Shown: positions 53,751 to 55,973 of the stretch, one piece after another | How the letters are laid out: every line of letters starts with the position of its first letter | How positions within the stretch are numbered: the first letter of the stretch is position 1 | From: Catellatospora sp. TT07R-123 | Lineage (GTDB): Bacteria; Actinomycetota; Actinomycetes; Mycobacteriales; Micromonosporaceae | Direction of reading: 5' to 3' | Assembly (NCBI RefSeq): GCF_018327705.1 | Contig: NZ_BNEM01000001.1 | Span: 2,418,001-2,482,000 of the forward strand | Length of the DNA: 64,000 nucleotides | Program-made: the position numbers and the translations under genes | Notes under the pieces: model-generated | What the model saw: only the letters and a program-made list of their open reading frames with translations | Databases searched by the model: none | What the model was told of the DNA's origin: nothing

Positions 53751-53784
53751 ATGAAGGCCCCTCTTCTTCGAAGGAGACCTTCAT
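53751..53784 (+). promoter_or_regulatory. Hairpin masking the ribosome site of the triad operon
   Basis: ATGAAGG (53751-53757) pairs with CCTTCAT (53778-53784), which contains the first two bases of the start codon, and inside it CTCTT can pair with AGGAG (one G:U). AAGGAG is thereby closed. Suggests that translation of the following gene can be switched. Confidence 0.5.
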
Positions 53785-54709
53785 GGACGACGGCGCCACC
53801 TGGGGCATCCCGGGGCCCACGTTCCTGTGGCTCTATCTCGGCCTGTTCGTGGTGGTGCTGGTCGGCACGCTGATCCACCGGAAGCGGCTGTTCGCCGGCC
53901 CGGACTCGGTGCGCGTCGACCAGCTCACCCCGCAGCAGGTCGCCTACCTCAGCGACGGACCGCGCCTGGTCGTCTACGCGTCGCTGGCGTTCCTGCGCCA
54001 GTCGCTGGCGATCGAGACCGGCGCGGACGGCCGGCTGCGGCGCGTCGGCGTGCTGCCCGCCGGGGCGACGCCGGTGGACGCGGCGGTGCTGCACGCGGCG
54101 GGCAACGGCGCCCGGGTCGGCGAGCTGGCCGCCGAGCGGTCGGTGGCCGCGGCCCTGGAGGAGCTGCGCTCGTCGCTGGAGCGGGCCGGCCTGGTGGTCG
54201 CCCCCGAGGTCGCCCGCAGCGCCCGGCGCGGCGGCTACCTGCTGCTCGCGCTGCTGGCGCTGGGCGTGCTCCGGGCCTGGGCGGGCGTGCGCAACGACCG
54301 GCCCATCGGCAACCTGATCGCGGTCATGGTCCCGCTGCTGATCGTGAGCGTGGTCGTGCTGGTGATCCGCCGCACCCGCACCCGCGCCGCGACCAACGCG
54401 CTGTTCGACGCCAAGAAGCAGTACTTCCACCTCTCCCCCACCCAGCAGCCCTCCTGGGCCACGTACGGGGCGGCCGGGGCGGCCATGGGCGTGGGCCTGT
54501 TCGGGGCGGCCGCGCTGTGGAGCGCCGATCCGGCGTTCGCCGCCGAGGCCCAGATCGACCAGGTGCGCCAGCGCGTCGGCAACGACGGCAGCACCTACTA
54601 CTCGTGCAGCACCGGATCGTCGTGCAGCGGCGGCTCGTCCGACAGCGGCGGCGGCTCGTCGTGCGGCGGCGGGTCCTCGTGCGGCGGTGGCGGCGGGTGC
54701 GGGGGATGA
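53783..54709 (+). CDS. TIGR04222-like membrane protein with Cys/Gly/Ser tail, candidate modified precursor
   Basis: 308 aa. First membrane helix at about 13-32; a soluble segment with 'DQLTPQQVAYLSDGPRLVVY' (about 47-66) and two winged-helix-like halves; a helix pair near 155-195 and another near 235-250; then a last ~35 residues low in complexity, built from Gly and Ser with five Cys in SSC and GGC units ('YYSCSTGSSC', 'GGSSC', 'GGGGGCGG'). This layout matches the actinobacterial TIGR04222 family. Its stop overlaps the DUF692 gene's ATG. DUF692/MNIO enzymes modify Cys-rich peptides, so the tail is a plausible substrate and the rest a carrier in the membrane (inference). Confidence 0.82.
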   Translation: MDDGATWGIPGPTFLWLYLGLFVVVLVGTLIHRKRLFAGPDSVRVDQLTPQQVAYLSDGPRLVVYASLAFLRQSLAIETGADGRLRRVGVLPAGATPVDAAVLHAAGNGARVGELAAERSVAAALEELRSSLERAGLVVAPEVARSARRGGYLLLALLALGVLRAWAGVRNDRPIGNLIAVMVPLLIVSVVVLVIRRTRTRAATNALFDAKKQYFHLSPTQQPSWATYGAAGAAMGVGLFGAAALWSADPAFAAEAQIDQVRQRVGNDGSTYYSCSTGSSCSGGSSDSGGGSSCGGGSSCGGGGGCGG

Positions 54710-55536
54710 CCCCGCTGGCCGGGCGCGGTGTCGGCATCGGCTGGCGGCCCGAGATCGCGGGGTTCGTGGCCGAGCTGCCCGGTCTGCGCTTCGTCGAGGT
54801 CGTCGCCGAGTCGGTGCCGCACCGCGGCCACGGTGAACCGCCCCCGGCGCTGGCCGCACTGGCCCGCGCCGGGGTCGCCGTCGTGCCGCACGGGGTGAAG
54901 CTCTCCCTCGGCGGCGCCGAGCCGGTCGACCCGCACCGCGTCGCGCACCTGGCCCACTGCGCGCAGGTGCTGCGGGCCCCGCTGGTCAGCGAGCACATCG
55001 CGTACGTCCGCGCGGGCGGGCTGGAGGCCGGGCACCTGCTGCCGGTGCCGCGCAGCCGGGCGGCGGTCGCCGCGATCGCGGCCAACGTCGCCCGGACCAC
55101 CGCCGAGCTGGACGTGCCGCTGGCGCTGGAGCCGATCGCGGCGCTGTTCGACTGGCCCGACGACGAGCTGACCGAGGCCCAGTTCCTGACCGAGGTGCTG
55201 GACCGCACGGACGCGCTGCTGCTGCTCGACATCGCCAACGTGTACGCCAACGCCCGCAACCGCGGCACCGACCCGCTGGCCCTGCTGGCGGAGCTGCCGC
55301 TGGACCGCGTGGCGTACGTCCACGTCGCGGGCGGTTCCGAGCGCGGCGGCCACTACCACGACACGCACACCGACCCGGTGCCCTGGGAGGTGCTGGAGCT
55401 GCTGCGGGAACTGTGCGACCGGTCCCGCCCACCGGCGCTGCTGCTGGAACGCGACGGCGACTACCCGCCCGCGGCGGCCCTGCGCGCCGACCTGGACGCC
55501 ATCAGCGACGCCTCCGGCTACCCGGTGATCACGTGA
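54706..55536 (+). CDS. DUF692 / multinuclear non-heme iron oxidase (MNIO), peptide-modifying
   Basis: 276-aa TIM-barrel enzyme. Family motifs: 'GVGIGWRPEI' at the start, 'VVPHGVKLSLGG' (His), 'LVSEHIAYVRAG' (Glu, His), 'LALEPIAALFDWPDDE' (Glu), 'LLLDIANVYANARN' (Asp, Asn), 'VHVAGGSERGGHYHDTHTDP' (several His) and 'LLLERDGDYPP' (Glu). These ligand the two or three irons in characterised members (MbnB, TglH), which oxidatively rework Cys or Asp side chains of ribosomal peptides. ATGA overlap with the Cys-tailed gene and GTGA overlap with the next one: a tight three-gene unit. Confidence 0.9.
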   Translation: MTPLAGRGVGIGWRPEIAGFVAELPGLRFVEVVAESVPHRGHGEPPPALAALARAGVAVVPHGVKLSLGGAEPVDPHRVAHLAHCAQVLRAPLVSEHIAYVRAGGLEAGHLLPVPRSRAAVAAIAANVARTTAELDVPLALEPIAALFDWPDDELTEAQFLTEVLDRTDALLLLDIANVYANARNRGTDPLALLAELPLDRVAYVHVAGGSERGGHYHDTHTDPVPWEVLELLRELCDRSRPPALLLERDGDYPPAAALRADLDAISDASGYPVIT

Positions 55537-55973
55537 CGGAGGTGTGGCGCGAGGAGCTGGCGCGGCGGCAGGAGGAGCTGGTGCGGGCGCTGGTCGGCGG
55601 GGGTGCGCTGCCCGACGGGTTCGTGGCGCGCGACGTGACCGCGACGCGGGACGCGCTGCTGCGCAAGCGGGCCGGCGAGGTGGCCCGGGTGTGGCCGCTG
55701 CTGGCCGCCTCGGCCGGGCCCGGCCGGTGGGCGGCGACGTTCGGCGCCTGGGCGGCGGGACGGCCGCCGCAGGGTTCGCTGCGCGACGGCTGGGACTACG
55801 CGCGGGCGCATCCGCCGGTGGGCCCGGCCGCGCTGGAGCTTGCGGAGCGGGAGCTGCTGTGGTCGTACGACAGCAGCTCCGCGCCCCGTCCCCGCCGGGG
55901 ACCCGGCCTGGGCCGGGTGGGCGGGGTGTTCCTGGTCCGCTGGCGCGGACGCGTCCACCGCTGGTCGCGGTAG
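55533..55973 (+). CDS. Small helical partner protein (DUF2063/HvfC-like)
   Basis: 146 aa. 'REELARRQEELVRALVGGGA', 'VARDVTATRDALLRKRAGEV' and 'VWPLLAASAG' resemble the N-terminal helical domain of the DUF2063 (HvfC) proteins that accompany DUF692 enzymes and are thought to present the precursor peptide. The C-terminal ~35 residues are basic (Arg-rich), possibly membrane- or nucleic-acid-contacting. GTG start overlapping the MNIO stop. Identification by pattern and context; moderate certainty. Confidence 0.7.
   Translation: MTEVWREELARRQEELVRALVGGGALPDGFVARDVTATRDALLRKRAGEVARVWPLLAASAGPGRWAATFGAWAAGRPPQGSLRDGWDYARAHPPVGPAALELAERELLWSYDSSSAPRPRRGPGLGRVGGVFLVRWRGRVHRWSR

What the first reader, a model, noticed from the sequence alone, without database searches (positions are those of the whole stretch)
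53751..55973. Three-gene MNIO unit whose peptide substrate may be the Cys-rich tail of a membrane protein
Three genes overlap by 4 nt each: a multi-span membrane protein ending in a ~35-residue Gly/Ser tail with five Cys, a DUF692/MNIO enzyme with its iron ligands present, and a small DUF2063-like helical partner. MNIOs known so far modify short secreted precursors (established: MbnB, TglH, and HvfB-type systems). A precursor that is itself a ~270-residue membrane protein would be a different arrangement, giving a modified, possibly metal-binding patch at the membrane. The enzyme/partner/Cys-substrate grammar is intact.
Basis: partly seen in the sequence, partly recalled or inferred. Interest (0 to 1): 0.88.

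Follow-up and report, generated by a model that had tools for sequence, protein, structure and literature searches.

The report
Enzyme set for membrane-anchored cysteine tail
Three adjacent genes encode a membrane protein with a cysteine-rich tail and an iron enzyme with its helper that probably remodel those cysteines; this arrangement was recently predicted by others but is untested, and here it recurs as a modular unit across many actinobacteria.

Summary
A 308-residue TIGR04222 membrane protein with five Cys in a Gly/Ser tail, an MNIO (DUF692) enzyme with its iron ligands, and a small partner overlap by 4 nt each; gene 1 starts at 53783, not 53751. That the membrane protein is the MNIO substrate is not a new idea: Antoine et al. 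2025 proposed it from genome mining, without experiment.
Added here: (1) a partner domain is found in 61 of 61 MNIO loci of this clade (296-genome class sample), fused to the MNIO in 32. (2) In six loci the Cys tail hangs on a single helix instead of the TIGR04222 domain. (3) In the window's family 75 of 87 MNIO loci carry the tail, 65 ending exactly in -Cys-Gly-Gly. (4) Charge and hydropathy favour a cytoplasmic tail, against the published view; the window protein itself is borderline. (5) In two comparisons the tail is more constrained than the membrane part.
Against: 19 of the 61 MNIOs, 14 in one Streptomyces-like clade, have an intact enzyme without a Cys-tailed neighbour, and the tail-enzyme association is not significant once relatedness is allowed for (few usable pairs). 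Chemistry and function remain inferred.

The parts
53783..54709 (+). TIGR04222-domain membrane protein, 308 aa: three clear hydrophobic segments, a long domain between the first two, a weaker fourth hydrophobic segment, and the Cys-rich C-terminal tail; putative substrate
   Evidence: TIGR04222 142.8 bits; hydropathy and charge; AF2 model, mean pLDDT 54
54521..54706 (+). Codons for residues 247-308: tail with five Cys, ending -GGGGGCGG; putative modified part
   Evidence: sequence; 65 of 75 family tails end in -CGG; dN/dS 0.19 against 0.71 for residues 1-246 (window vs C. tritici), 0.33 against 0.46 (vs sp. KI3)
54706..55536 (+). MNIO (DUF692, PF05114) enzyme, 276 aa; putative iron ligands H62, H97, E142, D175, N178, H206, D219, E248, with H221 nearby
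   Evidence: PF05114 E 1.5e-78; ligands placed by motif and spacing against VcMbnB and kept in 60-61 of 61 relatives
55533..55973 (+). MNIO partner protein (PME-type 2-like), 146 aa, GTG start
   Evidence: homologous domain in 61 of 61 MNIO loci of the clade, fused to the MNIO in 32; no Pfam/NCBIfam hit

Best explanation
A membrane-tethered RiPP-like system. The MNIO and its partner form a cytosolic complex, as MbnBC and HvfBC do. It binds the C-terminal Gly/Ser/Cys tail of the TIGR04222 protein and oxidises Cys residues of the tail, probably to thiooxazole-type groups as in bufferins and oxazolin, leaving a modified, possibly Cu(I)-binding patch fixed to the membrane. The tail is more likely on the cytoplasmic side, so it need not be exported. 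Shown: the gene unit, the enzyme family and ligands, the constant and often fused partner, the conserved tail with changing anchor, and constraint on the tail. Inferred: that the tail is modified, which Cys, the chemistry, the side of the membrane and any copper role. The confidence given is for 'the enzyme pair modifies tail Cys', whichever the side; given that, I put the cytoplasmic side at about 0.6.
For: Overlapping genes. Class sample of 296 genomes: 54 of 95 TIGR04222 places over cut-off lie within 5 kb of an MNIO, all 54 on the same strand; a Cys tail occurs in 34 of those 54 and in 5 of the other 41 (Fisher p 6.6e-7, relatedness ignored); 38 of 39 Cys-tailed proteins are in a genome with an MNIO, the exception lying near a contig end. 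42 of 61 MNIOs of the clade have a Cys-tailed neighbour: 35 with a TIGR04222 anchor, 6 with a single hydrophobic helix, 1 with an anchor not determined (assigned by me; tree). Partner domain in 61 of 61 loci. Family sample: tail in 75 of 87. In the 39 class-sample Cys tails the last Cys is followed by 2-9 residues. dN/dS, window vs C. tritici: tail 0.19, body 0.71, MNIO 0.10. An engineered HvfB-HvfC fusion has high activity (PMC13419390 abstract), which the natural fusions mirror. Highest-scoring NCBIfam maturase is BufB, 177.6 bits but under its cut-off of 310.
Against: 19 of 61 MNIOs of the clade have no Cys-tailed neighbour, 14 of them in one Streptomyces-like clade with ligands intact. Of the other five, two genomes (G100, G111) have a Cys-tailed TIGR04222 protein elsewhere; a third (G038) has only a remnant-like one. 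The Cys-tail/MNIO association is not significant in tree-independent pairs (3 usable pairs). 7 of the 75 family tails have only two Cys in the last 45 residues. The partner's resemblance to DUF2063 was not significant and its AF2 model was poor (pLDDT 44). No copper gene belongs to the three-gene unit. I found no experimental report on a TIGR04222 protein (two papers hold the name; one of them not opened).
Confidence: 0.7

Rival explanations
1. The tail is the substrate but is extracytoplasmic: a fourth transmembrane segment takes it across after modification, giving a bufferin-like metal-binding patch outside the membrane (the view of Antoine et al. 2025). This shares the 0.7 of the main reading.
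For: The paper's AlphaFold models and predicted topology (PMC12452194 passage). In the window protein the fourth segment reaches mean hydropathy 1.45; it reaches 1.5 or more in 7 of 31 Cys-tailed proteins scoring at least 100 bits, up to 2.46, among them one Streptomyces-like protein.
Against: In 24 of 31 the fourth segment is below 1.5, and in most Streptomyces-like proteins it carries charged residues. 52 of 52 proteins have more Lys/Arg on the side that puts the N-terminus outside and the end of segment 3 inside. The single-helix versions have the Arg-rich side next to the tail (six of six by eye, the start of the L168 protein being uncertain). The AF2 model breaks the segment, at low confidence.
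Confidence: 0.27
2. The MNIO modifies another, unlinked or overlooked peptide, and the Cys tail is an unmodified metal-binding or disulfide-forming tail that is merely co-inherited.
For: 14 MNIOs of one Streptomyces-like clade lack the tail neighbour yet keep the ligands; in two genomes MNIO and Cys-tailed protein are unlinked; tree-corrected association not significant. My scan looked for Gly/Ser/His-rich Cys tails only, so another Cys peptide near these MNIOs is not excluded; several Streptomyces-like loci have a ~60-aa ORF with six Cys.
Against: The tail is kept while its anchor is replaced; its gene overlaps the MNIO gene in the window; 75 of 87 family loci have it.
Confidence: 0.17
3. The MNIO system acts on the tail, but to make a non-metal product: a protein cross-link, a backbone change or a released C-terminal peptide, using the conserved -CGG end.
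For: MNIOs do diverse chemistry (PMC12452194 discussion); 65 of 75 family tails end exactly in -CGG.
Against: The best-scoring maturase families are BufB and HvfB, whose described products are thiooxazoles. By eye on representative loci no protease or tailoring gene recurs and the flanks differ between lineages; this was not searched systematically.
Confidence: 0.13

Closest known systems
TIGR04222-MNIO-PME-type 2 clusters of Antoine et al. 2025 (PMC12452194)
   Same: Same three kinds of gene, mostly Actinomycetota, Ser/Gly tail with Cys, proposed as MNIO substrate; PME-type 2 partner found by them in at least 10% of TIGR04222 clusters
   Different: They place the tail in the periplasm and report that many clusters appear to lack a partner gene. 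What I saw (abstract, sections 13, 17, 18, 19, 21, and found passages; of 15 places with fusion and related words 12 were shown) mentions neither a TIGR04222-type MNIO fused to its partner nor a single-helix tail protein after the MNIO; their small 'adjamnio-V' proteins encoded after MNIOs could be the latter, but I could not see that figure
Bufferin (BufA-BufB-BufC) and oxazolin (HvfA-HvfB-HvfC) systems
   Same: MNIO plus partner plus Cys-rich substrate encoded together; best-scoring maturase families
   Different: Short secreted substrates with signal peptides; partner is a DUF2063-RRE protein; the window MNIO is far below the BufB and HvfB cut-offs
Methanobactin MbnABC
   Same: MNIO with the same iron ligands and a partner
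   Different: Very short signal-less peptide substrate; MNIO hit to the MbnB model only 24 bits
MNIOs with an extra fused domain: MovX (C-terminal RRE / winged helix) and ChrH
   Same: Precedent for a helper function within the MNIO chain (mentioned in PMC12452194 and PMC13419390)
   Different: There the fused part is an RRE-type or unknown domain; here it is homologous to the separate partner gene of the same clade

Membership tests
MNIO superfamily (PF05114) | Profile match over the whole domain | tested here: met
   264 bits, positions 1-260 of 263
MNIO superfamily (PF05114) | Iron ligands as in VcMbnB (His55, His91, Glu135, Asp165, Asn168, His194, Asp209, Glu238) | tested here: met
   Equivalents H62, H97, E142, D175, N178, H206, D219, E248, matched by motif and spacing; 60-61 of 61 relatives keep each
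Bufferin maturase BufB / HvfB equivalogs (NCBIfam) | Score above the curated cut-off | tested here: not met
   177.6 of 310 and 151.5 of 360 bits
TIGR04222 membrane proteins | Profile match above cut-off | tested here: met
   142.8 bits, cut-off 43, full length 1-229
TIGR04222 proteins proposed as MNIO substrates | C-terminal Ser/Gly-rich segment with Cys, next to an MNIO gene | tested here: met
   five Cys, 4-nt overlap
TIGR04222 proteins proposed as MNIO substrates | Tail exposed outside the cytoplasmic membrane | tested here: inconclusive
   fourth hydrophobic segment borderline in the window (1.45); charge and hydropathy over the family favour a cytoplasmic tail
PME (DUF2063 or DUF2063-like) partner | DUF2063 Pfam match (type 1) | tested here: not met
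   no Pfam family for the window protein; no DUF2063 match in any of 27 members of A1
PME (DUF2063 or DUF2063-like) partner | Structural similarity to NGO1945/TglI (type 2) | tested here: inconclusive
   poor AF2 model, not searched; profile search of PDB sequences without a relevant hit; hhalign E 0.12 to DUF2063
RiPP biosynthesis | Post-translational modification of the encoded substrate | not testable with these tools
   needs mass spectrometry

The most novel reading that the evidence does not exclude
A separate branch of MNIO biology in which the product is never secreted: a modular, C-terminal Cys-Gly tail held at the inner face of the membrane by interchangeable anchors (TIGR04222 domain or a lone helix), modified in place by a cytosolic MNIO-partner enzyme that is often one fused polypeptide, giving a membrane-fixed metal-binding or redox patch facing the cytoplasm.
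Probability: 0.42. Interest if true: 0.8.

Novelty: new member of a known kind. Interest (0 to 1): 0.6.

Why it matters
If the tail is modified, MNIO chemistry extends from secreted peptides to integral membrane proteins and gives a membrane-fixed, genetically encoded site in many actinobacteria (over a hundred sampled loci here). The natural MNIO-partner fusions and the small single-helix tail proteins are convenient minimal enzymes and substrates for testing that question directly, and they bear on the published puzzle of TIGR04222 clusters that seemed to lack a partner. The side of the membrane decides whether such a system could handle metal entering, leaving or inside the cell.

Tried and rejected
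Signal peptidase release of the tail: the window has Ala-Phe-Ala after the fourth segment, but relatives read DPxFA, DPxLA, EPDLR and the like, also in proteins without a tail, so a cleavage site is not conserved; dropped.

Function from flanking genes: looked at ORFs around representative loci; the flanks differ between lineages, so they give no functional hint. Labels such as PEP carboxykinase, argC/argJ, pheT, hemQ/hemG, and ABC exporter next to the window unit, are my recognition by eye; no family search was run on them.

Structure: the partner model was too poor to search; the TIGR04222 model gave no PDB match below E 4.9. Partner profile against PDB sequences and Pfam: no DUF2063. DUF2063 in a phylum sample: 0 of 60 genomes. 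PHROGs: nothing. One of the 27 rows of the partner alignment A1 (L063) was cut at wrong ends: it begins about 56 residues too early and lacks as many at its end; the row was left in.

Whole-genome search for other Cys tails in tail-less Streptomyces-like genomes: a degenerate DNA pattern found 33 of 40 known tails but also 23 background hits in 473 kb, too unspecific; not run, so an unlinked substrate there is untested.

Tree-corrected association of tail and MNIO: only 3 usable independent pairs on well-supported branches, not significant. Trees are of the 'quick' kind; the 14-row clade has SH-aLRT 92, below the star level. Rows dropped: 7 of 75 MNIO hits below 140 bits from the MNIO tree; 23 of 95 TIGR04222 places below 60 bits from the pairs test; second fragments of one frame were not listed among the 95. 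The script labels 27 loci fused and 34 separate; five of the latter (L072, L106, L107, L108, L155) are fused by length, hence 32 and 29.

Family count: one search lists 94 MNIO places; three already held (G000, G095, G196) and one fragment of G405 were not counted again; of the remaining 90, 3 could not be oriented and were dropped, leaving 87. With the first, stricter criterion 64 of 87 had a tail; with the second, at least 2 Cys in the last 22 residues, 75 of 87. Of the 12 without: two lie at contig edges (L223, L261), four have a different small Cys-containing ORF upstream (L182, L205, L219, L250), L196, L198 and L234 look lost or broken, L252 is split, L175 and L233 are unclear.

Papers: PMC12452194 abstract, sections 13, 17, 18, 19, 21 and found passages; PMC8888699 passages; PMC13419390 abstract and passages; all others only search listings. 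Literature searches: (a held open-access library only).

Full report
What is in the window. Three genes on the + strand overlap by four bases each: 53783-54709, 54706-55536 and 55533-55973. The second is an MNIO (PF05114, E 1.5e-78). The third has no family match. The unit lies between a dimethylargininase-like gene (385.8 bits) and an ORF that looks like an ABC exporter by eye. The genome has one MNIO and one TIGR04222 protein over cut-off. Two named relatives are Catellatospora.

The enzyme. Residues equivalent to the VcMbnB iron ligands (PMC8888699 passages) are present by motif and spacing, and each is kept in 60-61 of 61 relatives; among the 19 without a tail neighbour the only exceptions are gaps in one row. 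The best NCBIfam maturase scores are BufB and HvfB, both well below their cut-offs. Solved relatives by sequence are 8hci/8hi7/8hi8 and 3bww; 8hi7 is named as the TglI structure in PMC12452194.

What is already known. Antoine et al. 2025 (PMC12452194) describe TIGR04222 proteins, mostly from Actinomycetota, often next to MNIO genes, with unstructured Ser/Gly/Cys C-terminal regions; they propose that subsets are MNIO substrates, with PME-type 2 partners in at least 10% of clusters, and say that many such clusters appear to lack a partner and that the modification is unexplored. The finding is therefore a member of a predicted, untested class.

Class survey. In 296 genomes of the class, 95 TIGR04222 places over cut-off (74 genomes) and 75 MNIO places (66 genomes) were compared. 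54 of 95 TIGR04222 places lie within 5 kb of an MNIO, all 54 on the same strand. With the criterion of at least 3 Cys in the last 60 residues and at least 50% Gly+Ser in the last 45, 34 of 54 with a local MNIO and 5 of 41 without have a Cys tail (p 6.6e-7 without correction for relatedness). Related lineages are not independent, and the tree-based pair test has too few pairs to decide. In these 39 tails the last Cys is followed by 2-9 residues.

The anchor changes, the tail stays. Scanning ORFs near MNIOs for Gly/Ser/His-rich Cys tails found six loci (L158, L161, L165, L166, L167, L168) in which the tail belongs to a short protein with one hydrophobic helix; in the first five it is 83-115 residues long and starts within the last bases of the MNIO gene, and in L168 it lies further downstream with an uncertain start. 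In the tree of 68 MNIOs, 61 form the clade of interest: 42 have a Cys-tailed neighbour (35 TIGR04222, 6 single helix, 1 undetermined anchor) and 19 do not. Fourteen of the 19 form one clade of Streptomyces-like genomes (SH-aLRT 92) nested among tailed relatives; they keep a tail-less second TIGR04222 protein or none. For these the substrate is unexplained. Of the other five, G100 and G111 have a Cys-tailed TIGR04222 protein elsewhere.

The partner is constant. A profile of 27 partner sequences (A1) matches all 61 loci (most members of the profile come from these loci and match by construction, the others do not). By length of the MNIO C-terminal extension 32 loci have the partner fused to the MNIO and 29 have it separate, with at least 6 changes between the states on the 68-row tree. 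This bears on the published remark that many clusters lack a partner. An engineered HvfB-HvfC fusion is active (PMC13419390); MovX and ChrH are known MNIOs with other fused domains.

The window's own family. In 121 genomes, 82 have an MNIO and 85 a TIGR04222 protein over cut-off. Of 87 MNIO loci examined, 75 have a C-terminal Cys/Gly tail upstream (at least 2 Cys in the last 22 residues, at least 75% Gly/Ser/Cys/His/Pro), 65 of the 75 end exactly in -CGG, and none of 1579 antisense ORFs meets the criterion. The partner is found in 79 of 87; among the 75 tail-type loci only L249 lacks it, and its contig ends 30 bases after the MNIO match. The 12 without a tail are listed under Tried and rejected.

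Selection. Between the window and Catellatospora tritici dN/dS is 0.71 for residues 1-246, 0.19 for the tail, 0.10 for the MNIO and 0.19 for the partner; against Catellatospora sp. KI3 0.46, 0.33, 0.10 and 0.50 (ratios; short sequences, one method). A low-complexity tail under such constraint is likely functional, although the second comparison shows only a small difference.

Which side. In 52 TIGR04222 proteins of at least 100 bits, Lys/Arg counts around the first three hydrophobic segments fit an outside N-terminus and an inside end after segment 3 in 52 of 52 (a few second segments are weak, down to 1.29). The fourth segment is below mean hydropathy 1.5 in 24 of 31 Cys-tailed proteins; in the window it is 1.45, in some relatives up to 2.46. 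The six single-helix proteins have the Arg-rich flank on the tail side (sequences, by eye). I therefore favour a cytoplasmic tail, against the published topology, but this is a simple calculation and the window protein is borderline.

Verdict. The gene unit and the putative substrate are real and recurrent. That the tail is modified is likely (about 0.7), the thiooxazole/copper reading is an analogy, and the class as such is not new. What the survey adds is the constant, often fused partner, the exchangeable anchor, the -CGG end and the probable cytoplasmic side.

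Noticed in passing
L182, L205, L219 (upstream of an MNIO without partner) and L250 (Catellatospora relative G365): Another MNIO type in the same family lies behind a short ORF with a Cys-rich end (for example ...TCNCYGSCG...), without the partner domain: looks like a separate short-precursor RiPP cluster.
   Followed up: no
L063:7755-7917 and the same place in L064: Between MNIO and partner two Catellatospora relatives carry a long hairpin (arms of 43 nt at 81% and 27 nt at 89% complementarity) where the window has a 4-nt overlap; a mobile-repeat-like insert.
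   Followed up: partly
family loci among L176-L260: 65 of 75 family tails end exactly in -Cys-Gly-Gly; a fixed C-terminal end in an otherwise variable tail is unexplained.
   Followed up: partly
L066, L069, L072, L073, L078, L081, L082, L083, L086: Streptomyces-like tailed proteins share a Trp-Cys-Ala/Gly motif, mostly after a few hydrophobic residues, at or before the start of the tail (seen by eye).
   Followed up: no
L069, L072, L091, L093, L097: These Streptomyces-like MNIO loci also carry a related Cys-free ~260-aa ORF, and L072, L091, L093, L097 a ~60-aa ORF with six Cys that looks like a zinc ribbon (by eye).
   Followed up: no
L133 (G038:C1:5645744-5646241): An unlinked TIGR04222 protein whose Cys-Gly stretch runs on into residues that resemble the partner, as if an MNIO gene between them had been lost (by eye).
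   Followed up: no
L002, L003 (window's genome, G000:C1:3744575-3744847 and G000:C2:1147039-1147461): Two weak TIGR04222-like matches (26-27 bits, below cut-off) elsewhere in the genome.
   Followed up: no
L084: Tail-like codons directly upstream of the MNIO lie in a different frame from the TIGR04222 domain before them: frameshift or a split gene.
   Followed up: no
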